DNA of 64,000 bases from Olleya namhaensis (GTDB lineage: Bacteria > Bacteroidota > Bacteroidia > Flavobacteriales > Flavobacteriaceae): the NCBI RefSeq assembly GCF_900114005.1, contig NZ_FORM01000009.1, positions 1 to 64,000 on the forward strand. Reading direction: 5' to 3'. Positions 1 through 8,570 of this stretch are shown in pieces; position 1 is the first letter of the stretch; every line of letters starts with the position of its first letter. The notes beneath the pieces were generated by a model that made no database searches, was not told the origin of the DNA, and saw nothing but the letters and a program-made list of their open reading frames with translations. The position numbers and the translations under genes were made by a program.

Positions 1-124
1 AACTATTTTTTTTACCTTCTAAACGTCTAAAAAAAATCTTTTGAACTAGAAAATATTAACAAAAAAAGGTCAACCTATATCAGTATAATACAAAACAGCA
101 TATTTCAAAATATATATATAATAG

Positions 125-142
125 TTGGAATAATCATTCCAA
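125..142. promoter_or_regulatory. Palindromic operator upstream of the TetR gene
   Basis: Perfect inverted repeat TTGGAAT-AATC-ATTCCAA ending 18 bases before the TetR GTG. The same half-site TGGAAT/ATTCCA recurs in the second palindrome at 731-750, so it is probably the binding site of the TetR protein encoded next to it. It lies where the -33 promoter element would be, which fits autorepression. The palindromes are seen directly; binding is inferred. Confidence 0.65.
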
Positions 143-148
143 TTATTA

Positions 149-156
149 TATATTTG
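149..156 (+). promoter_or_regulatory. Bacteroidetes -7 promoter box of the TetR gene
   Basis: TATATTTG matches the Bacteroidetes -7 consensus TAnnTTTG. The GTG start codon follows after only four bases, so transcription would begin at or next to the start codon, giving a leaderless or nearly leaderless mRNA. Confidence 0.5.
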
Positions 157-160
157 CAAA

Positions 161-712
161 GTGAATAAAAAACAAACCATATTATCATCTGCTCTTAAAA
201 TTCTTGTAAAAAAAGGTGTACATAACACACCTATGTCTGCTATTGGAAAAGCTGCAAAAACTGGAATGGGAACTATCTATAATTATTTCCCAAATAAAGA
301 TGCCTTAATTAATGAAATTTACACAGATATAAAAAAACAAGAAAAATTACTATTTGAAAAATTTGAAGCGGATAAGCCAATCAAAACTCAATTTGAAAAC
401 TATTTTACTATAGCAGTCGACTTTTTCATCGATAATCCTAATTATTTCCAATTTATGGAGCAACTGCAAGCTTCTCCTATTATAACGGAAAATAGTAAAG
501 AAGAAGGTAGAAAATCTATTACTCCTATTTTTGAACTTTTAACACTAGGAAAACAACAACGTATTATAAAAAACATTGACATCGAAGAAATTTTAATGTT
601 TATAGGTGGAGCTATTTTAGCTTATTTAAGATGGTATTTTAATCAAACAGAGAACAAACAAACCTCGCTTAAAAATCAAGTAATAATGGTTTGGGACGCA
701 ATCAAAGAATAA
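161..712 (+). CDS. TetR/AcrR family transcriptional regulator
   Basis: Encodes 183 residues. Residues about 8-54 form a TetR-type DNA-binding domain, recognisable by the T-x-M-x-x-I-G-K-A-A-K-T-G-M-G-T-I-Y-N-Y-F pattern. The remaining helical part would bind an unknown ligand. The only start giving a complete N-terminal helix is the GTG at 161; the next in-frame ATG lies inside the DNA-binding domain. It stands 52 bases before the SDR gene, and both are preceded by palindromes sharing the TGGAAT half-site, so it most likely represses itself and the SDR-DoxX pair. Family assignment is firm; the ligand is unknown. Confidence 0.9.
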   Translation: MNKKQTILSSALKILVKKGVHNTPMSAIGKAAKTGMGTIYNYFPNKDALINEIYTDIKKQEKLLFEKFEADKPIKTQFENYFTIAVDFFIDNPNYFQFMEQLQASPIITENSKEEGRKSITPIFELLTLGKQQRIIKNIDIEEILMFIGGAILAYLRWYFNQTENKQTSLKNQVIMVWDAIKE

Positions 713-730
713 AAAAATTTATCAATAATC

Positions 731-750
731 TGGAATGAACATTCATTCCA
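731..750. promoter_or_regulatory. Second TetR-type operator, in front of the SDR gene
   Basis: Perfect 9-base inverted repeat TGGAATGAA-CA-TTCATTCCA. It shares the TGGAAT...ATTCCA half-sites with the palindrome at 125-142, with a different internal spacing. It sits between the TetR stop and the SDR start at 765, so the SDR-DoxX genes may have their own TetR-controlled promoter. An ATG at 735 lies inside this palindrome, which argues against using it as the SDR start. Confidence 0.6.
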
Positions 751-764
751 AAAAGTTAACAATT

Positions 765-1625
765 ATGAAAAAAAACGTATTAATTACAGGAACGTCAACA
801 GGAGTAGGATTTGAAAGTGCTATTCTATTCGCTAAAAACAACTATAAGGTTTACGCTACAATGCGTAATCTTAAAAAAGCTGACAAGCTTAAACAAAGAA
901 TTTTGGAAGAAAATCTTAACATAGAAGTACTTCCTTTAGATGTAACTAAAGTAGCCTCTATAACATCTGTTGTAAAAACAATTATAGAAAAAGATGGAAA
1001 AATAGATGTATTAGTCAATAATGCAGGAGCTGGTTTTGCAAAAACAACAGAGCAGGCTTCAGAAGAAGAAATTAGATGGGTTACTGACGTAAATTATCAC
1101 GGAGTTGTATTTTGCACACAAGCAGTATTACCATATATGAGAAAACAAAAATCTGGTCAAATTATTAGTATTACTTCTGTTGGTGGTTTGGTTGGACAAC
1201 CTTTTAACGAATTATATTGTGGTGCTAAATTTGCTGTAGAAGGGTTTATGGAAGGACTTGCAACCTATGTTAGTGATGCTTTCAATATCAAAATTACTTG
1301 TGTTGAACCAGGAGGTATAGCTACAGAATTTATGACGTCTGCTATTGAAAAAACAGCTATTAAGGGACAATTTGCAACAGGAGAATACGCACCAATATTT
1401 GACAGATATATGGCAGGAAACCAAAAAAGAGCAAATGAAAGCAAAGAGCAAGTGTATCAAACAGGAATAGAAGTCGCAGAAGTTGCTTTAGGTATTGCTC
1501 AAAACGAAAATCCTCCTTTAAGAATCCGAACTTCACAATGGGCTGAAGATTTTTGTAAGTTAAAAACAAAAGCTGACCCAGATGGCCATAAAATAGTGAA
1601 ACAATTACAAGATAGTTTTTTATAA
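765..1625 (+). CDS. Short-chain dehydrogenase/reductase (SDR)
   Basis: A classical NAD(P)-dependent oxidoreductase of 286 residues. Visible motifs, numbered from the ATG at 765: the dinucleotide-binding T8-G-T-S-T-G-V-G15, the structural NNAG at 85-88, and the catalytic Ser138, Tyr151 and Lys155 in the Y-C-G-A-K motif. The upstream in-frame ATG at 735 lies inside the operator palindrome and adds a non-family extension, so 765 is preferred. The gene ends one base before the DoxX-like gene, so the two are co-transcribed. The substrate cannot be read from sequence. Induction by whatever the neighbouring TetR senses is an inference. Confidence 0.88.
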   Translation: MKKNVLITGTSTGVGFESAILFAKNNYKVYATMRNLKKADKLKQRILEENLNIEVLPLDVTKVASITSVVKTIIEKDGKIDVLVNNAGAGFAKTTEQASEEEIRWVTDVNYHGVVFCTQAVLPYMRKQKSGQIISITSVGGLVGQPFNELYCGAKFAVEGFMEGLATYVSDAFNIKITCVEPGGIATEFMTSAIEKTAIKGQFATGEYAPIFDRYMAGNQKRANESKEQVYQTGIEVAEVALGIAQNENPPLRIRTSQWAEDFCKLKTKADPDGHKIVKQLQDSFL

Positions 1626-1626
1626 T

Positions 1627-1980
1627 ATGAAAGTAATATATTGGTCTTCGACAGCAATATTATCCGCTTTTCTCTTCCTAAGCTCTTATAGCTATTTATT
1701 CAGTAAAAGTACAATTCAAGGAATTAAAAATTTAGGATTTCCTGACTTTTTCAGGGTAGAACTAGCTGTTTTAAAGTTGATAGCTGCAATAGTATTACTA
1801 ATACCTTTTGCTTCATTACAACTAAAAGAATGGACTTATGCAGGTGTTGGATTGTTTTTAATAACGGCTTTAGTCGCACATATCAAACATAAAGATTCTA
1901 TCTTTATTATGCTTCTACTTCTAATACTTTTGGCGATTCTAATAATATCCAACATATATATGAACAAGCTTTTAAAATAA
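1627..1980 (+). CDS. DoxX-like small membrane protein
   Basis: A 117-residue protein made almost entirely of four hydrophobic segments (about residues 5-22, 44-64, 69-86 and 90-110). The layout and the G-F-P-D-F-F-R-V-E-L stretch after the first helix resemble the DoxX-like (DoxX_2) family of small integral membrane proteins often found beside TetR regulators and oxidoreductases. It starts one base after the SDR stop, so translation is probably coupled. No enzymatic motif is visible and the role is unknown. A stem-loop followed by T residues at 2021-2049 probably ends the operon. Confidence 0.7.
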   Translation: MKVIYWSSTAILSAFLFLSSYSYLFSKSTIQGIKNLGFPDFFRVELAVLKLIAAIVLLIPFASLQLKEWTYAGVGLFLITALVAHIKHKDSIFIMLLLLILLAILIISNIYMNKLLK

Positions 1981-1990
1981 ATACTGTGGG

Positions 1991-2101
1991 TAACATTGTA
2001 TATAAAAAATAGCGAGGATAGCACAAATCATCAAGGTTTGTGCTTTTTTATATCTTTGTGTTTAACTGAAAAGTTAGTGAATTTAAATTCGCTACTTTTC
2101 A
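1991..2101 (+). repeat. 5' part of an attC-like palindromic element, split by the IS110 insertion
   Basis: Starts 10 bases after the DoxX stop with TAACATTGTATATAA, the counterpart of AACACCGTGTATAA at the start of the intact element at 4167-4298. The matching 3' arm, TATACAAAACCGTTGTGC, is found at 3403-3420 beyond the IS. Inside lies a near-perfect long palindrome at 2068-2100 (GAAAAGTTAGTGAATTT paired with AAATTCGCTACTTTTC). If the IS is removed, the outer arms TTGTATA/TATACAA and AAC/GTT fold on each other. Confidence 0.5.
2021..2049 (+). terminator. Rho-independent terminator of the TetR-SDR-DoxX operon
   Basis: Stem GCACAAA / TTTGTGC with a nine-base loop, followed directly by six T residues. 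It lies 40 bases downstream of the DoxX stop and inside the attC-like element. Confidence 0.65.
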
Positions 2102-2211
2102 AGAACTGTGTTAAAAACCTATTAAAAAAACAATTAATTTTTAAGCAATATTCCTCTATTACATTTTCATCCTTGAATAAAAACATATTGAAAATAATTA
2201 AAAACAAAGTA

Positions 2212-3180
2212 TTACCTAACTAATACACTCTTATAATTTTCGTCATACCATAAGTGAGATTTAGCAATTGCAAAGGACTGTTTCAATAGCTTATTACAAA
2301 CAGCTACTAAAGCTAGTTTTTTACTCTTACCCTTAGCTACAAGTCTACCATAGAGTTCGCGACAAGCTTTATTATGTTTACTAGTGGAGAAGCTGCAAAT
2401 AAATAATATTTTTCTCAATCGCCTATTCCACATTTTACTTATTCTAGGTCTTGACCGTATACTACTACCAGACTCTCTTATAATAGGTGTTAAACCAGCA
2501 AATGAACACAATTCTGATGCTGTATTAAAACGCTCAAATCCATCTGTCAAGACAATCAAAAGAGCACTAGCTTTAGCTCCTAAACCAGGGATACTTTTAA
2601 TCCGACTATGCAAGTCCTGATACTCTTCTTTTACCAATTTCAAAACGGTCATCTCTAAAGTTTCAATTTCTTTTTTATAATAATTTAAGCTCCGTTTTAT
2701 AGAGCGTATTACTCTAGGCACGGGACTGCCTTGAGCTTCTTCAGAGTGCAATTTATTTTTAAGAACAATAATCTCTTTAGTATATAAATTACTTAAACTT
2801 AATAAATGAGAGCATTCTATCTGACTCTTAGTCTGACCTGTCCATAACCTTGGAGTATTAATTAGAGCATACTCGTAAATCATTTTTGAATCACTCTTGT
2901 CTGTCTTAATTTTTGATAACTTCATCTGTATAAAACGTTTAACAGACAATGGATTCTCAACACTAACTTTAATGTTTTGTTCTATTAAAAAATAGGCCAA
3001 TCGTAGATGATACACACCTGTAGACTCCATAACACAATGAGAATTATCTTCCATAAGTTTAAGGAATTGCTTAAAACCTTTAAGATCATTGCTAAACTGA
3101 TGAAATAAATTATCATTGCCCATTACATCAAAAACATCCTTGCTAATGTCAATTCCAAAATAATTTGTATTTTCATTCAT
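2212..3180 (-). CDS. IS110-family transposase (DEDD recombinase)
   Basis: A 322-residue recombinase that catalyses excision and integration of the element. The N-terminal RuvC-like domain shows the four acidic residues D11 (G-I-D-I-S-K), E52 (M-E-S-T-G), D94 and D97 (T-D-K-S-D-S-K). A coiled linker follows (about 120-185), then the C-terminal Transposase_20 domain (about 190-280) with I-P-G-L-G and the serine-rich E-S-G-S-S motif. Length is normal and there is no frameshift, so it is probably active. Family knowledge: IS110 recombinases use a bridge RNA from the noncoding end, here upstream of the gene (3181-3401). Confidence 0.93.
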   Translation of the reverse strand: MNENTNYFGIDISKDVFDVMGNDNLFHQFSNDLKGFKQFLKLMEDNSHCVMESTGVYHLRLAYFLIEQNIKVSVENPLSVKRFIQMKLSKIKTDKSDSKMIYEYALINTPRLWTGQTKSQIECSHLLSLSNLYTKEIIVLKNKLHSEEAQGSPVPRVIRSIKRSLNYYKKEIETLEMTVLKLVKEEYQDLHSRIKSIPGLGAKASALLIVLTDGFERFNTASELCSFAGLTPIIRESGSSIRSRPRISKMWNRRLRKILFICSFSTSKHNKACRELYGRLVAKGKSKKLALVAVCNKLLKQSFAIAKSHLWYDENYKSVLVR

Positions 3181-3401
3181 AATTAAAATGTTATGAAAGA
3201 ACGTATCTACCGTGTTTTCTACAACTTAAAAACGAGATCCTTAGTCTCTTAGAACTGTACGAAATAATAGTAGAAAAGGGAGGGGATTCTCAAGAAAAAC
3301 GAGATCTAGTCTCAATATACAAAATAACCTTAATCCTCTCTTTTTGTTCTTTCTGATTATATACTTAAATTTAATACCTTTAATCAAAAATCAAACTTAA
3401 G
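3181..3401 (-). ncRNA. Candidate IS110 bridge RNA region
   Basis: About 220 noncoding bases upstream of the transposase, at the IS end. Read on the minus strand it has two related hairpins, each followed by CGTTTTT: GAGACTAGATCTC (plus positions 3301-3313) and GAGACTAAGGATCTC (3234-3248). Beside them lie likely guides. Plus-strand TATACAAAA at 3316-3324 equals the host flank at 3403-3411. AGAACTGT at 3251-3258 equals the IS terminus at 2102-2109. AACTTAA at 3223-3229 equals the other terminus at 3394-3400. This order (guide, hairpin, guide, twice) is that of the target- and donor-binding loops known for IS110 bridge RNAs. RNA ends are not determined. Confidence 0.55.
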
Positions 3402-3402
3402 T

Positions 3403-3420
3403 TATACAAAACCGTTGTGC
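3403..3420 (+). repeat. 3' arm of the split attC-like element
   Basis: TATACAAAACCGTTGTGC differs at one position in its first 17 bases from TACACAAAACCGTTGTG at 4281-4297. The GTTGTGC at 3414-3420 resembles an integron core site (GTTRRRY) and is the exact reverse complement of the GCACAAC that opens the next element at 4167. It lies 24 bases before the DUF6090 start codon. Confidence 0.5.
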
Positions 3421-3444
3421 TTCATTATGACTAATCACTAACCA

Positions 3445-4161
3445 ATGATAAAATTCTTTAGAAAAATTAGACAAAATTTACTTTCAGAGGGAAAAACTGG
3501 AAAGTATTTTAAATATGCCCTAGGAGAAATTGTGCTTGTCGTTATTGGAATTTTAATAGCATTACAAATCAACAATTGGAATGAAAATAGAAAGCAACAA
3601 GCTGAAATTACTGATATTTATAAGCAGATTGTACTTGATTTAGATAATGACATTGATGAATTTTCAAACGTTATCAAATATTACGATTCTATAAAACCCG
3701 TTTACGATGCTGTCATTTCAGATACTAGAACTATAGATTTATTGGACGACGGTTTGTCTCGATTAATGGTCGAAATTACAGCAACTAATATGAATAAAGG
3801 CGGTGTTGAACGCTTAAAATCAATTGCTTCTAAAGATAGTCTATCATTGTATTTGATTGAAATATATGATACTGGAACAGTCATTAATACTATGGAGAAA
3901 GAAATTACTGATGAAAGTTGGTTAATTGTAAATAAATTTAGAGATAATTACAGTTGGTATCCCGAATGGATAAGTAAAACAATAACAAAAGATAATAGCA
4001 GTAAGGAGCTACAAGATTATTTTGTAAATAGTCAAGAATATAGGCATTATGTTATTAGTAATTACCAGAAATTATATAATAATTATATACCGATTTTGGA
4101 ATATGGTATAGTAGAATTGGAAAATATAAAGAAATCAATTAATGAACGAATAGATAAATAA
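3445..4161 (+). CDS. DUF6090 family membrane-anchored protein
   Basis: A 238-residue protein of unknown function. The N-terminus (M-I-K-F-F-R-K-I-R) followed by G-K-Y-F-K-Y-A-L-G-E-I and one strong transmembrane helix (about residues 26-46, ending L-Q-I-N-N-W-N-E) is the hallmark of DUF6090, a family I know to be abundant in Flavobacteriaceae. The rest is a charged helical domain with no enzymatic motif, probably periplasmic. The gene stands alone between the attC-like arm at 3403-3420 and the intact element that begins five bases after its stop, an arrangement like a gene cassette. Whether it is mobile is inference. Confidence 0.75.
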   Translation: MIKFFRKIRQNLLSEGKTGKYFKYALGEIVLVVIGILIALQINNWNENRKQQAEITDIYKQIVLDLDNDIDEFSNVIKYYDSIKPVYDAVISDTRTIDLLDDGLSRLMVEITATNMNKGGVERLKSIASKDSLSLYLIEIYDTGTVINTMEKEITDESWLIVNKFRDNYSWYPEWISKTITKDNSSKELQDYFVNSQEYRHYVISNYQKLYNNYIPILEYGIVELENIKKSINERIDK

Positions 4162-4166
4162 CGAAA

Positions 4167-4298
4167 GCACAACACCGTGTATAATTAATTGCTGGTTTTA
4201 GCCAATTTACAAAAGTCCTCGCGGACTTTCTATCTGTAATTTATTTGCTAACTTAGTTCCTTAAATCACGCAACTTTCCATACACAAAACCGTTGTGT
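4167..4298 (+). repeat. Intact attC-like palindromic element
   Basis: About 132 bases bounded by GCACAAC (4167-4173) and GTTGTGT (4292-4298). The ends fold as a two-block stem: CACAAC pairs with GTTGTG, and GTGTAT with ATACAC, separated by unpaired ACC and AAAACC. The interior has the perfect hairpin AAAGTCC-TCGC-GGACTTT at 4212-4229. It begins five bases after the DUF6090 stop. The layout recalls integron attC sites, but the R boxes deviate from GTTRRRY at one position and no integrase gene is in the window, so a dispersed extragenic repeat remains possible. Confidence 0.5.
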
Positions 4299-4502
4299 AC
4301 AATTAAACCAATGAATTTTCCTGAAATAGGTTGACTAAAAATTAAGCAATTAATTACAGTCACTTATGAAAACAAAAAATGAATGGAAAAATCAGAAACA
4401 TACTAATACATTTTACACAACTTAATTTTCTTAAAAAAAACTACAAAACACCAACTATAAAGACCTTAAAACAGGTCGCTTAAAATATTACAAATTAGAA
4501 TT
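4299..4502. other. AT-rich intergenic stretch without a recognised feature
   Basis: Between the attC-like element and the next gene there are only very short open frames (19 codons or fewer) with no recognisable product, no clear TAnnTTTG promoter and no strong stem-loop. I see nothing I can name here. Confidence 0.5.
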
Positions 4503-4958
4503 ATGAAAATCAAACAGACAATTACTTTAATTATTATTTTAATAAGCGCAACCGTTTCCTTTGCCCAATCTACAGACTTAGATAAAGACATTACAGAAAT
4601 TAATATATTAATGAAAGAAAACGGAATAAATAATAAATACTACACCCAATTAAGTGTTAGTGATGATAAATTGATTTTTGAAAATGTTGGTAGTCAGTAC
4701 AAACTAAAAAACACTCAGAAAAGAGAGATCACAATTGAAAAAATAGTATTAAAAAAAATAAAACTAACATCTACCAACCGTCATAATAGAACATTAACAT
4801 CAACTATTGAAATTAAGACAAAAGGAAAACACATCTACAATGACGCTTTGAAAGGTAATTACTCCAATTGTTTTATCTTTTTAAAGGTGAAAAAAGAGGA
4901 AGTTGCTGAAACGGTTCAAAATAAAATTATTGAATTGATAACAAAGCTACAAGCTTAA
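4503..4958 (+). CDS. Small secreted protein of unknown function
   Basis: A 151-residue protein with a clear Sec signal peptide (about residues 1-21, ending V-S-F-A-Q). The mature part is charged and mixed alpha/beta in character; no domain or catalytic motif is recognised. It lies alone next to the cassette-like region and is followed by a good rho-independent terminator at 4986-5015. It may belong to the same accessory region as the preceding genes. Confidence 0.6.
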   Translation: MKIKQTITLIIILISATVSFAQSTDLDKDITEINILMKENGINNKYYTQLSVSDDKLIFENVGSQYKLKNTQKREITIEKIVLKKIKLTSTNRHNRTLTSTIEIKTKGKHIYNDALKGNYSNCFIFLKVKKEEVAETVQNKIIELITKLQA

Positions 4959-4985
4959 TATTTTTTTTCACAAATACGCCTAATT

Positions 4986-5015
4986 AAAAAAATCGCTGGT
5001 AAAGCGATTTTTTTT
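4986..5015. terminator. Stem-loop terminator between the secreted protein gene and gldD
   Basis: Stem AAAAAATCGCT / AGCGATTTTTT with loop GGTAA, flanked by A and T runs on both sides, so it could end transcription from both the plus-strand gene (stop 4958) and the convergent gldD (stop 5063). Confidence 0.75.
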
Positions 5016-5062
5016 AGTCCAATATCTTGTTTCTGCTATTTAAGCTATGGTTAATACTACAT

Positions 5063-5641
5063 TTACTTCCATTCTACACTTTCCATAATACGCTTAATAT
5101 CTTTTTGCAAGTAGTGTGCGGCAGGTAAAATAGAATCGTAATTTGGTTTAGCATAAAAATAAAGCGATCCTGTTAAAAAGTGATTAATGCTATCTGTAAT
5201 ATAAAACTGCGATTGTGATGCTGCGTTACCACCAACCTCATAAAACATACCATACACTTTATTAACTGGGTTCTCCCAAACGACTTCCTCAATAGCGTCC
5301 GCTTTTTTAGTATGCTCTTGTGTAAAGTTTTGTGCGTTTTTAAGATATTTAGTTAAGCGCTCTTGACCATCAATAGCCTTATAGGTTAAGTAAACCGTCC
5401 CTTTAAGCTTCTTGTACTCTATATTTAACCCAAAGCTTTCCACATCATCTTTTAATGGCTTAAAACGTATGGTATCACTTTGCGCATTTCTATCAAAAGT
5501 AAATGGTAAATCTTGATCATAGGTTTTGTATTGTGCCTGCGGATACTCTAACCTTAGATATCCGTTTGGTTTTGGAATTGGGTCACTTCCACAGCTTAAT
5601 AATACAATAAATGAGATAAGAATGACTATTGTTTTTTTCAT
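5063..5641 (-). CDS. gldD: Gliding motility lipoprotein GldD
   Basis: A 192-residue lipoprotein needed for gliding and T9SS function in Flavobacterium (family knowledge). It starts with a signal peptide and lipobox ending L-L-S-C-G, and the mature start P-K-P-N-G-Y-L-R-L-E-Y-P is typical of GldD. The ATG at 5641 is preferred over an in-frame ATG seven codons upstream because it puts the signal peptide right at the N-terminus. It is the last gene of the ssb-gldE-gldD cluster, 45 bases after gldE; gldE-gldD linkage is conserved in the phylum. Confidence 0.9.
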   Translation of the reverse strand: MKKTIVILISFIVLLSCGSDPIPKPNGYLRLEYPQAQYKTYDQDLPFTFDRNAQSDTIRFKPLKDDVESFGLNIEYKKLKGTVYLTYKAIDGQERLTKYLKNAQNFTQEHTKKADAIEEVVWENPVNKVYGMFYEVGGNAASQSQFYITDSINHFLTGSLYFYAKPNYDSILPAAHYLQKDIKRIMESVEWK

Positions 5642-5686
5642 AAAAAGAGCACTTAAACGCAATATTAGCGCCTATTTAGTTATTGT

Positions 5687-6991
5687 TTAAGGTAATGTAA
5701 CCTTGACACGTTTTATTCGTTTTTTATCTAATGCTTCTATAGTAAAAACGTATTTTTCAAAATTTATTTTACTATTACGTTTCGGAAATCCTCCAGAATT
5801 TTCTAAAATAAAACCAGCTAATGTTTCTGCTTCCCCTTTATGGTTTTCAAAAACAGTATCGTCTTCTATTTTAATAATCTTATAAAAATCTTTCAAGGCA
5901 GTTTTACCTTCAAAAGCATAATTTTTATCATCTAGTTTTGAGTAAATCAAATCTTCGTCATCAAACTCGTCACTAATATCACCTACTATTTCTTCTATTA
6001 TATCTTCTAAAGATACCAAGCCAGAAGTCCCACCATACTCATCTACTACCATCGCTAAATGGACTTTCTTTTCTTGAAACTCTGCCATTAAATCATCCAA
6101 TTTTTTGTTTTCTGGCACAAAAAACGGTTCTCTTAATAGTGTGGTCCAATCAAACCCTTTTTTATCTATATATGGCAATAAATCTTTTACATATAACACA
6201 CCAATAATAGTGTCCATATTATCTTTATAAACCGGAATTCTAGAATACCCATTATCAATAATTTCTGGTATAATCTCGCTATAGGGTTGCTCCACATTTA
6301 GAGCAAATACATCTATACGTGGTTGCATAACTTGTTTGGTATCTGTGTTACCAAAACTAACAATTCCTTGTAGTATTTTTTGTTCTTCTTTAGTGGTATC
6401 ATGCTCACTGGTTAACTCTAATGCTTGAGATAATTGATCAACACTTAAATTTGATTTTTGCTTTCCTAGTTTGTTATGTATCCCTAAAGTTATACTACGC
6501 ATAGGCAAACTTAAAGGCGAAAATAACACATCTAAAACACGCAGTGGATATGCCATAAACGTTGCAAATTTTAAGTTATTACGACTGGCATATATTTTTG
6601 GTAAAATTTCTCCAAATAATAATATTAAAAAGGTAATAACAACAACTTCTAATACAAACTTTGCTAAGGGAGAGGCAATACTTGCAAAAATATAATTACC
6701 TAAAAAGGCAAACAATATTACAATACCAATATTTATAAAATTATTAGCCACCAATATTGTTGCCAATAATTTTTTTGGACGCACTAATAGTTTTGAAATG
6801 ATCTGAATTTGTTTTTTACCTTTTAAATTTTCGTCTTCTAAATCTGATTTGGATAGTGAAAACAAGGCCACTTCTGCTCCTGATATCATTGCAGAGCATA
6901 TTAATAGTACTATTAATAGCACAAAACCAAGTACAACATTAATATTGTTGGTAACTAATAACGCTAAAAAACTCGAGGGTTCGGGATCCAT
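5687..6991 (-). CDS. gldE: Gliding motility-associated protein GldE (CNNM/CorC-type membrane protein)
   Basis: A 434-residue inner-membrane protein. Residues about 20-190 form a DUF21/CNNM transmembrane domain with several helices; about 205-330 hold two CBS domains (the stretch G-Y-S-R-I-P-V-Y-K-D is typical), and about 345-432 a CorC/HlyC C-terminal domain. Family knowledge links such proteins to divalent cation transport, and GldE to stabilising GldD. It starts nine bases after the ssb stop and is followed by gldD, so the three are probably one transcript. Confidence 0.9.
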   Translation of the reverse strand: MDPEPSSFLALLVTNNINVVLGFVLLIVLLICSAMISGAEVALFSLSKSDLEDENLKGKKQIQIISKLLVRPKKLLATILVANNFINIGIVILFAFLGNYIFASIASPLAKFVLEVVVITFLILLFGEILPKIYASRNNLKFATFMAYPLRVLDVLFSPLSLPMRSITLGIHNKLGKQKSNLSVDQLSQALELTSEHDTTKEEQKILQGIVSFGNTDTKQVMQPRIDVFALNVEQPYSEIIPEIIDNGYSRIPVYKDNMDTIIGVLYVKDLLPYIDKKGFDWTTLLREPFFVPENKKLDDLMAEFQEKKVHLAMVVDEYGGTSGLVSLEDIIEEIVGDISDEFDDEDLIYSKLDDKNYAFEGKTALKDFYKIIKIEDDTVFENHKGEAETLAGFILENSGGFPKRNSKINFEKYVFTIEALDKKRIKRVKVTLP

Positions 6992-7000
6992 AATTAATTA

Positions 7001-7438
7001 TTAAAACGGAAGATCGTCATCACTAGAAACAGGTTTAGGTGCTGCTGGTTTTTCAGCCATTGGATTAGCTTGTTGCTTTGCTGGAGCAGCTTCTGGATCA
7101 CGTTTTGTGTTTAAAAATGTAAAGTCCGAAACCTGTATTTCCGTACTATAACGCTCATTACCAGAGTCGTCTTGCCATTTTCTGTTTTTTATACGCCCTT
7201 CCACATATACTTTATCCCCTTTGGTTAAGTATTTTTCGCAAATTTCTGCTGCTTTATTACGCACCACTATATTATGCCAATCTGTATTAGTAACACGCTC
7301 ATTAGTTTGCTTACTAACATAAGTCTCGTTAGTTGCCAAAGGAAAACGTCCAACACAACCACCGCCTTCAAAGTAGTGCATCTTTACTTCATCTCCTAAA
7401 TGCCCTATAAGCATTACTTTATTTAATGTTCCTGACAT
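7001..7438 (-). CDS. ssb: Single-stranded DNA-binding protein
   Basis: A 145-residue SSB that coats single-stranded DNA during replication and repair. An N-terminal OB fold (about residues 4-104) includes N-K-V-M-L-I-G-H-L-G and the T-x-W-H-N-I-V core. A flexible Ala/Pro/Lys/Gln linker leads to the acidic tip D-D-D-L-P-F, which recruits partner proteins. The ATG at 7438 is the natural start. A candidate -7 box (TAATTTTG on the minus strand) lies at 7460-7467. It leads the ssb-gldE-gldD cluster. Confidence 0.95.
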   Translation of the reverse strand: MSGTLNKVMLIGHLGDEVKMHYFEGGGCVGRFPLATNETYVSKQTNERVTNTDWHNIVVRNKAAEICEKYLTKGDKVYVEGRIKNRKWQDDSGNERYSTEIQVSDFTFLNTKRDPEAAPAKQQANPMAEKPAAPKPVSSDDDLPF

Positions 7439-7529
7439 AAGTTATGGTTTTTACCGCTACAAAATTACAGCTTTAAGCTTCAATGTAAATAAATTTAATA
7501 AAAAATATTGAGGTGTTACGGTTTATAGT

Positions 7530-8570
7530 TTAAAAATTAAATTTTTCAATAAAATTTCCAATCAAAATAGGCACAGGATAGTCCTTAATTTGTTTTATAG
7601 ACACTCCTTTTGATAACTCTTGATCTAAAGTAACTATCCAAAATTTAGTATTTAAATGTTGATGTGATAATTTATGGACAATAACCTTATCATTATATAA
7701 AGACACATCAAACGTTGCGTCTTTTAAAATATCTAAATTTTCAATCTCGTTTACTATAACCTCATGCGTGGCTTCCTTTTCAGTTTCGATTAACGGAAAC
7801 TGATATAAGTTTTGCCAAATACCACTACCTTGACGTTGTTCAATAATAGTTTTGTTGTCTTTGGACAGCATGACTATAAAATTAAAATGTTTTTTAGTAA
7901 CCTTGTTGGCCTTCAGCTTGACTGGCAACTCACCTATTGTTCCTTTTTGTAATGCAACACACACCGTATTAAAAGGACATATATTACAATCCGGATTTTT
8001 GGGCTTACATAAACGTGCACCAAACTCCATTATAGCTTGATTAAAAGTCGCCGGTTGTTTAACATCTATTAATTGTTGTGCTAAAGCTTTAAACTCTTTA
8101 AACCCTTTTCCTGTATTTATGGCAGTTTCAATACCATATATTCTAGATAGTGCGCGATATACATTACCATCTACAACAGCGGTGATTTGGTTAAAACAAA
8201 TGGATGCTATGGCACTTGCCGTATAATCTCCAACACCCTTTAATTTTAAAATATCATCAAAAGTGTCTGGAAATTGCCCATTTAATACATTTACTATATA
8301 TTTGGCTGAAGCATGTAAGTTTCTGGCTCTAGAATAATAACCAAGTCCTTGCCATAACTTTAACACATCTTGCTCGTCTGCGTTTGCTAGGTCAAAAACA
8401 GTTGGGTAATAGGTTGTAAAAGCGGTATAATAAGGTAAACCTTGTACGACTTGTGTTTGTTGTAATATAATTTCGGAAAGCCAAATAAAATAAGGGTTAG
8501 TGGTGTTACGCCAAGGCAAATCACGCTTATTATCTGTGTACCAATTAATTAGTTGTTTTGAGAGATTCAT
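7530..8570 (-). CDS. mutY: A/G-specific adenine glycosylase MutY
   Basis: A 346-residue repair glycosylase that removes adenine mispaired with 8-oxoguanine. It shows the helix-hairpin-helix L-K-G-V-G-D-Y-T-A-S-A-I-A, the catalytic aspartate in A-V-V-D-G-N-V, and the four-cysteine iron-sulfur motif C-x6-C-x2-C-x5-C (about residues 187-203). The C-terminal about 120 residues are the NUDIX-like domain that reads 8-oxoG. A candidate -7 box (TACTTTTG on the minus strand) is at 8594-8601. Divergent from the HU gene. Confidence 0.95.
   Translation of the reverse strand: MNLSKQLINWYTDNKRDLPWRNTTNPYFIWLSEIILQQTQVVQGLPYYTAFTTYYPTVFDLANADEQDVLKLWQGLGYYSRARNLHASAKYIVNVLNGQFPDTFDDILKLKGVGDYTASAIASICFNQITAVVDGNVYRALSRIYGIETAINTGKGFKEFKALAQQLIDVKQPATFNQAIMEFGARLCKPKNPDCNICPFNTVCVALQKGTIGELPVKLKANKVTKKHFNFIVMLSKDNKTIIEQRQGSGIWQNLYQFPLIETEKEATHEVIVNEIENLDILKDATFDVSLYNDKVIVHKLSHQHLNTKFWIVTLDQELSKGVSIKQIKDYPVPILIGNFIEKFNF

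What the first reader, a model, noticed from the sequence alone, without database searches (positions are those of the whole stretch)
3181..3401. IS110 noncoding end reads like a bridge RNA with guides matching its own insertion site
Seen: on the transposase strand two similar hairpins are each flanked by short segments. One segment beside the first hairpin contains TTTTGTATA, identical on the same strand to the host sequence abutting the IS (3403-3411). Segments around the second hairpin contain ACAGTTCT, identical to the other IS terminus (2102-2109), and TTAAGTT, matching the near terminus around the palindrome CTTAAG (3394-3401). The ACAGTTCT match includes the candidate core CT. After the first hairpin, TTTTTC could pair, with one wobble, with the other host flank GAAAAG. 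This is the guide-hairpin-guide order known for target- and donor-binding loops of IS110 bridge RNAs. Known: IS110 recombinases use such RNAs. Caveat: bases next to the core in the target loop do not match fully, and AT-rich sequence gives chance matches.
Basis: partly seen in the sequence, partly recalled or inferred. Interest (0 to 1): 0.8.

Follow-up and report, generated by a model that had tools for sequence, protein, structure and literature searches.

The report
RNA-guided jumping gene targeting integron-like sites
A small bacterial jumping gene carries an RNA that reads both its own ends and its landing site, and the landing site looks like the recombination site of integron gene cassettes; the mechanism is of a known kind, but two short crossover words that are identical in the studied example differ here.

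Summary
The finding is right in substance. The noncoding end of this IS110-group element (IS = 2101-3401, minus strand) encodes a two-loop bridge RNA. On a 42-sequence alignment 95.9% of cells pair, with 113 compensatory cells against 24.4 in shuffles. The left target guide follows the host flank across 29 RNA types (6.93 of 8 matches against 4.54 permuted, 0 of 5000); the right target guide and left donor guide behave likewise.

Without CTT the right guide pairs 9 of 9, two of them G-U.

New points. (1) The target is one arm of a ~125-bp site that behaves like integron attC; most relatives fetched insert in the opposite arm. (2) Core dinucleotides differ: right end TT in 74 of 75, left end TT in 2 of 86. 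The donor-loop guide base at core position 8 fits the target in 77 of 86 and the donor in 2 of 86. A known kind of system with a variant core rule. Nothing was tested at the bench.

The parts
2101..3401 (-). whole IS110-group insertion sequence, 1301 bp, from CTTAAG (left end) to CAGTTCTT (right end)
   Evidence: ends set by unoccupied targets in the same genome, by relatives and by two tandem right-end/left-end junctions in relatives L076 and L093
2212..3180 (-). IS110-family recombinase gene, 322 aa; D11, E52, D94, D97, S237 line up with IS621 D11, E60, D102, D105, S241
   Evidence: Pfam PF01548 and PF02371 over cut-off; phmmer to IS621 chain 8wt6_A E 1.1e-30 and ISCro4 9t56_A 3.3e-29; residue numbers of IS621 from passages in PMC11208158; window numbers counted by hand on the alignment
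3195..3353 (-). bridge RNA core region
   Evidence: conserved fold with compensatory changes, 42 sequences
3346..3353 (-). 5' strand of an outer stem (GAAAGAAC) that encloses both loops
   Evidence: pairs with 3195-3202; 90.4% of cells paired, 2 of 8 pairs with changes on both sides
3195..3202 (-). 3' strand of the outer stem (GTTCTTTC)
3328..3340 (-). target-binding loop, 5' stem side
   Evidence: helices 2 and 3
3316..3324 (-). left target guide TTTTGTATA
   Evidence: identical to host flank; flank-following in relatives
3301..3313 (-). target-loop hairpin GAGACTAGATCTC
   Evidence: helix 4: 3 of 4 pairs with changes on both sides
3291..3299 (-). right target guide UUUUUCUUG (UU = core guide, last G = first handshake base)
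   Evidence: 9 of 9 pairs with TAAGAAAAG, 7 Watson-Crick and 2 G-U
3278..3285 (-). target-binding loop, 3' stem side
3251..3258 (-). left donor guide ACAGTTCT
   Evidence: identical to the right end of the IS; first letter A or T follows the right end in 73 of 77 copies
3234..3248 (-). donor-loop hairpin GAGACTAAGGATCTC
   Evidence: helix 7
3225..3231 (-). right donor guide UUUUAAG, its UUAAG pairing with CTTAA at the left end
3223..3224 (-). core guide UU of the donor loop; matches the target core AA, not the donor core TT
3221..3222 (-). handshake guide GU of the donor loop
   Evidence: register by comparison with IS621; covariation with target positions 7 and 6 of IS621 numbering (labelled there pos 5 and 4)
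3392..3399 (-). TAAGTTTG, resembles the Bacteroidetes -7 promoter word TAnnTTTG (recalled); would be completed by the right end in the circle
   Evidence: TTG lies 20 nt 5' of TAAG in 71 of 84 right-end/left-end junctions built; the window's own junction has TAG there
3402..3416 (-). host flank, left half of target AACGGTTTTGTATAA
   Evidence: same in unoccupied sites L198 and L208 of the same genome
2088..2100 (-). host flank, right half of target GAAAAGTAGCGAA
   Evidence: unoccupied sites
4165..4298 (+). intact attC-like site next to the interrupted one; its left box AAGCACAAC (4165-4173) is complementary to GTTGTGCTT (3414-3422) at the start of the DUF6090 cassette
   Evidence: right boundary approximate

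Best explanation
The window holds an IS110-group insertion sequence whose left end encodes a bridge RNA. The recombinase binds this RNA. The first loop pairs with the target (left guide with the bottom strand of TTTTGTATA, right guide with the top strand of TAAGAAAAG). The second loop pairs with the joined IS ends (left guide ACAGTTCT with the right end, right guide UUAAG with the left end). The top strands are cut after the core dinucleotide and exchanged, so the IS goes in between TTGTATAA and GAAAAG without duplicating bases. Shown here: anatomy, conserved fold, guide-to-flank and guide-to-end covariation, intact unoccupied targets. Inferred from IS621: RNA binding, cleavage chemistry, circle intermediate. 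The target is one arm of an attC-like site in integron-like cassette arrays. In the group at 48% protein identity and above, the donor core is TT, whereas the target core varies and is matched by the core guides of both loops.
For: Pfam and PDB matches to IS621/ISCro4. Conserved two-loop fold: 95.9% of cells paired, 113 compensatory cells against 24.4 shuffled, 0 of 500, and about 50% paired when slid. Left target guide 6.93 of 8 against 4.54 permuted over 29 types, 0 of 5000. Right target guide positions 10-14: 4.06 of 5 against 3.13, 0 of 5000; core positions 8-9: 1.02 against 0.64, 0 of 5000 (75 of 86 copies, 17 guide types). Left donor guide first letter tracks the right end in 73 of 77. 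Unoccupied targets: 20 in the own genome at up to 1 mismatch, in 10 of 10 genomes of the genus, reversed-pattern control 1 in all, against one coding-sequence hit when CTT is included. Corrected register gives the window 9 of 9 pairs.
Against: No RNA, circle or transposition was observed. Rfam has no matching family at E 1 or better in window 1-8000. The own genome has one copy only. By the window alone the matches are not decisive (20 of 5000 shuffles). Guide matches are not perfect: left guide position 9 fits in 26 of 86, position 8 in 54 of 86 by identity (there pos 7 and 6), and the Algibacter copy L003 has two mismatches in its right guide at positions 12-13. Most targets belong to one repeat family, so the permutation null is high and the 29 types are related by descent. 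The outer stem rests on few both-side changes.
Confidence: 0.94

Rival explanations
1. The upstream region is an attenuator or structured 5' leader of the recombinase gene, and the resemblances to flanks are chance in AT-rich DNA.
For: The region lies directly upstream of the gene; 20 of 5000 shuffles of it give both kinds of flank match.
Against: Guides follow flanks across 29 RNA types and 17 right-guide types, while the loops' stems covary. A leader has no reason to track the host flank.
Confidence: 0.02
2. The protein alone picks the target; the RNA guide matches are remnants of copying the flank when the IS lands.
For: Most relatives sit in the same repeat family, which alone would give matching flanks (permuted mean already 4.54 of 8).
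Against: Copies of one IS at different sites of a genome share their guide while outer flanks differ (G366, G145, G153), so the guide is not copied at landing. Proteins 48-61% identical use different guides with matching different targets (TCTACC, TTAACCG, AAACC, TTAAGCA, TTACCA).
Confidence: 0.03
3. The unequal core dinucleotides are not a property of the reaction: true targets had TT cores and the left-end dinucleotides drifted or were repaired later.
For: TT-core sites exist: TATACACTTTGTTG once in each of 5 of 6 genomes searched, and 1 of 24 opposite-arm sites in the own genome has TT. TT is at the left end in 2 of 86 copies.
Against: Most unoccupied sites are not TT (own genome: GG 17, GT 3, TA 2, AG 1, TT 1 of 24). 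Left-end dinucleotides vary among copies of one IS in one genome while the right end stays TT in 74 of 75. The four exact unoccupied sites of the window type carry AA, as the window's left end does.
Confidence: 0.15

Closest known systems
IS621 and its bridge RNA (IS110 group; PMC11208160, PMC11208158: passages and single sections read)
   Same: DEDD plus Ser recombinase of like length, RNA in the left end upstream of the gene, target loop then donor loop, left guides copy the top strand and right guides are its complement, top-strand cut placed after the core, two-base handshake guide, promoter-like word at the junction
   Different: donor core TT differs from the target core, whereas IS621 has CT in both; core guides of both loops fit the target core; outer stem joining the two RNA ends, where IS621 is described with a 5' stem-loop; promoter words of Bacteroidetes type; no RNA experiment here
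ISEc21 (IS110 family; PMC11187229, passages read)
   Same: left-end noncoding RNA region, insertion without target duplication, natural redirection to a new target by changed guide
   Different: its target lies in IS3-family transposase genes; protein 358 aa; core relation not compared here
IS1111-attC group: ISKpn4, ISPst6 (PMC11187229, passages read)
   Same: RNA-guided insertion at one end of attC sites of integron cassettes
   Different: IS1111 family with the RNA downstream of the gene and subterminal inverted repeats; here IS110 group with the RNA upstream, and two lineages that use opposite arms of the site

Membership tests
IS110 group of the IS110/IS1111 family | DEDD RuvC-like domain plus C-terminal domain with catalytic serine | tested here: met
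   PF01548 and PF02371 over cut-off; residues align with IS621
IS110 group of the IS110/IS1111 family | long noncoding end upstream of the gene (left end), not downstream | tested here: met
   221 bp upstream (3181-3401) against 111 bp downstream (2101-2211)
IS110 group of the IS110/IS1111 family | no long subterminal inverted repeats (those mark IS1111) | not tested
   no dedicated search run
bridge RNA | two internal loops, each guide-hairpin-guide, conserved by covariation | tested here: met
bridge RNA | first loop complementary to the target on both strands, tracking it across elements | tested here: met
bridge RNA | second loop complementary to the joined IS ends | tested here: met
   left donor guide; right donor guide UUAAG against CTTAA by inspection
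bridge RNA | RNA is made, binds the recombinase and directs recombination | not testable with these tools
   needs experiments
IS621-type core rule (a property of IS621, not of the whole family) | same core dinucleotide in donor and target | tested here: not met
   right end TT 74 of 75; left end TT 2 of 86
integron attC site (the target) | left box complementary to the start of its own cassette | tested here: met
   19 of 34 neighbouring pairs share 4 or more bases, 3.1 expected; 17 of 17 pairs less than 1000 bases apart share 5 or more
integron attC site (the target) | array next to an IntI-type integrase | tested here: inconclusive
   a tyrosine recombinase lies 0.4-2.5 kb from listed sites in 5 of 8 genomes, one of them with a stop codon, but integrase_gron is below its cut-off in all 8, rings in all 14 controls, and profile positions of about 183-238 are unmatched in the best hits

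The most novel reading that the evidence does not exclude
In this clade the bridge RNA writes the core for the target alone. The right-hand guides of both loops carry the same core guide (mostly UU), which fits the variable target core, whereas the donor core is fixed as TT and faces a U-U mismatch in its own loop until the target strand enters. Such a built-in donor mismatch could act as a one-way aid to strand exchange, extending the handshake idea from two to four bases. The left and right ends keep different dinucleotides, which gives a natural marker for how the bottom strands are resolved. It would also mean that RNA-guided IS110 elements colonised both arms of integron-like sites in Flavobacteriaceae.
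Probability: 0.4. Interest if true: 0.65.

Novelty: new variant of a known kind. Interest (0 to 1): 0.5.

Why it matters
Bridge recombinases are being developed as programmable DNA-insertion tools, and the rule that donor and target share a core limits their targets. A natural clade in which the two cores differ offers a way to test whether that rule can be relaxed, and lets one follow which strand's letters survive at each end. The attC-like target shows an IS110-group counterpart of the IS1111-attC elements, with natural retargeting between the two arms of one site.

Tried and rejected
Extended handshake. For a while I read four to six bases 3' of the right donor guide as an extended handshake guide (notes). 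The unoccupied sites moved the register by two, after which these bases are the core guide plus the ordinary two-base handshake; position 3 of the old numbering is not significant (112 of 2000) and positions 2 and 1 show nothing.

Target guide leaving the core unpaired. Rejected with the same register change.

Empty-site patterns that included CTT: none in the own genome at 3 mismatches, one coding hit at 1 mismatch. Viral contigs: no relative. PLSDB plasmids: no megablast match. Rfam: nothing relevant in the window or in four relatives. A search with the protein of the L021 clade gave only 3 of 397 genomes.

A first right-end count of 82 of 84 TT used a search pattern that forced the first T, so I recounted without it: 74 of 75, with 23 of 98 not found by that anchor. 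A still earlier count listed 70 of 77 TT; six of the seven others were false anchors and L102 is a true TA.

One apparent attC unit in L237 overlaps the integrase gene and was discarded.

The clade at 35-42% identity was left out of the statistics; its equal cores (AT at both ends in L104, L105, L106, L110, L116; L107 not obviously so) were read by eye and not checked against unoccupied sites.

Full report
What is there. The window holds one IS110-group element on the minus strand, 2101-3401 (1301 bp), single copy in its genome. Its gene (2212-3180, 322 aa) has both IS110 Pfam domains over cut-off and aligns over nearly its whole length with IS621 (E 1.1e-30) and ISCro4 (E 3.3e-29) in the PDB; D11, E52, D94, D97 and S237 (counted by hand) fall on the IS621 catalytic residues (IS621 numbers from passages of PMC11208158). 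The named close relatives are Mariniflexile and Algibacter, so the host is most likely a member of Flavobacteriaceae (inference).

Relatives used. Protein searches gave 12 of 60 near genomes at E 1e-60, 48 of 397 family genomes at E 1e-75 and 19 of 395 class genomes at E 1e-45. From 104 tblastn hits of at least 43% identity, duplicate loci already removed, 98 gave a left end; six were dropped for short upstream DNA or no left end. These make 89 distinct combinations of flank and left target guide; L076 and L093 (flank is the right end of another copy) and L090 (no real left end) were dropped, leaving 86.

The RNA. RNAalifold on 42 thinned sequences (window included) predicts 32 pairs, 19 with a change on both sides. 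Counting that structure plus an outer stem: 95.9% of 1677 cells pair; 21 pairs and 113 cells have both sides changed, against 9.7 and 24.4 in shuffles (0 of 500); sliding the 3' partners by 1 to 3 columns drops pairing to 47-53%. The order is target loop (stem, left guide, hairpin, right guide, stem) and donor loop (the same), enclosed by GAAAGAAC/GUUCUUUC. IS621 is described with a 5' stem-loop instead (PMC11208158, passages).

Guides against flanks. For each copy the left guide sits at a fixed distance from its hairpin. Over 29 RNA types identity with the flank at eight positions is 6.93 of 8, against 4.54 (sd 0.23) when targets are permuted among types, 0 of 5000. Examples: window TTTTGTATA with flank TTTTGTATA; L006 TATACACG with TATACACG; L025 TCTACC with TCTACC; L028 TTAACCG with TTAACCG; L037 TTAAGCA with TTAAGCA; L016 GGTTACCA with GGTTACCA. 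Imperfect fits exist and are in the counts. The right guide pairs at positions 10-14 of IS621 numbering with 4.06 of 5 against 3.13 permuted (0 of 5000; 75 of 86 copies with both ends, 17 guide types). The left donor guide's first letter is A with A (24) or T with T (49) at the right end in 73 of 77 copies; three of the four exceptions are misparsed guides.

The register. Unoccupied sites decide otherwise. TTGTATNNGANNAGTNGCG, without CTT, occurs 20 times in the own genome at up to one mismatch (four exact) and in 10 of 10 genomes of the genus, with one match of the reversed pattern in all. With CTT there is a single hit at one mismatch, in coding sequence. Sites L198 and L208 read AACGGTTTTGTATAA|GAATAGTTGCG, the same left half as the window flank. 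So the IS is CTTAAG...CAGTTCTT. The junctions between tandem copies, CAGTTCTT-CTTAAG (L076, L093), agree. With CTT removed the window's right guide UUUUUCUUG pairs TAAGAAAAG at all nine positions. This is the IS621 layout: core at positions 8-9, cut after 9, handshake at 7 and 6 (PMC11208158).

Unequal cores. The right end reads TT in 74 of 75 copies when anchored only on donor positions 1-7 (23 of 98 not found). The left end, which is the target's own dinucleotide, reads GT 24, AT 20, AA 12, GG 12, GA 4, GC 3 and seven others, TT 2 of 86. In the own genome opposite-arm sites carry GG 17, GT 3, TA 2, AG 1, TT 1 of 24. The donor-loop core guide pairs with target position 8 in 77 of 86 (48 Watson-Crick, 29 G-U) and with a donor T there in 2 of 86; at position 9 it pairs with the target in 46 of 86 and with a donor T in 12 of 86. 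The target-loop core guide behaves the same way (76 and 46 of 86 with the target; 6 and 12 of 86 with the donor). In IS621 pairing with both strands of a CT core was strongly preferred (PMC11208160, passages), and handshake pairing with the loop's own DNA blocked exchange while pairing with the other DNA helped it (PMC11208158 section 11). The unequal core may be an extension of that principle; this is inference. Distant relatives (35-42%) show AT at both ends in the copies read by eye, and L021 shows CA at both, so equality looks lost in this group. Insertion without duplication is reported for ISEc21 (PMC11187229, passages), so absence of a duplication as such is not new.

The target. Units of about 125 bp lie in directional arrays. 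For neighbouring units the bases after the right box of one are complementary to those before the left box of the next in 19 of 34 pairs (four bases or more), 3.1 expected; mean 4.06 against 1.16, 0 of 5000. All 17 pairs less than 1000 bases apart share five or more; of the 17 wider ones two share four or more, probably because units between were missed. This is what integron cassettes show, because attC's left box is complementary to the start of its own cassette (recalled). The longer ORF lies on the attC strand in 20 of 24 gaps. In the window the DUF6090 gene (3445-4161) lies between the interrupted site and an intact one whose box AAGCACAAC (4165-4173) is complementary to GTTGTGCTT (3414-3422). 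A tyrosine recombinase lies 0.4-2.5 kb from listed sites in G145, G153, G366 (twice), G093 and G005 (there with a stop codon), 5 of the 8 genomes searched; in G000 it is at a contig end, and G189 and G030 could not be judged from the capped or missing site lists. It is closer to XerA-type proteins than to IntI: NF040815 is over cut-off in one of two, integrase_gron below cut-off in both; PDB best matches are XerC-like and XerA, then IntI4. I therefore say attC-like. The window's lineage uses one arm; most relatives fetched use the opposite arm (TATACACnn|TGTTG). IS1111-family ISKpn4 and ISPst6 also target one end of attC sites (PMC11187229, passages).

Promoter. In 71 of 84 junctions TTG stands 20 nt before TAAGTTT, which fits the Bacteroidetes promoter words (recalled). 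The window's junction has TAG there, so its RNA promoter may be weak.

In print. Searches of the held library on bridge RNA and IS110, seekRNA, Flavobacteria with IS110 or repeats and integrons in Bacteroidetes showed no description of this element, of unequal cores, or of these arrays in titles and abstract starts; integrons in Bacteroidota as a phylum are reported (PMC2426708 and PMC8618304, passages). Subscription journals are mostly not held.

Noticed in passing
window 1984-2100 plus 3402-3424, and 4165-4298; L236, L238-L243: Integron-like cassette arrays in Flavobacteriaceae: ~125-bp attC-like sites, cassettes with matching start and end boxes, and an array-end tyrosine recombinase nearer to XerA than to IntI with an N-terminal extension.
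   Followed up: partly
   Followed up: partly
L009, L019, L025 (G030): Three IS copies share more than 150 bp of identical left flank but have different right flanks, as if the left flank moved or was duplicated with the IS.
   Followed up: no
L055: Bridge RNA with extra hairpin inserts in the target loop and after the left donor guide, probably inserted small repeats.
   Followed up: no
window 2080-2112: The -33 TTG of the putative junction promoter is missing in the window copy (TAG instead), so this copy may express its RNA poorly.
   Followed up: partly
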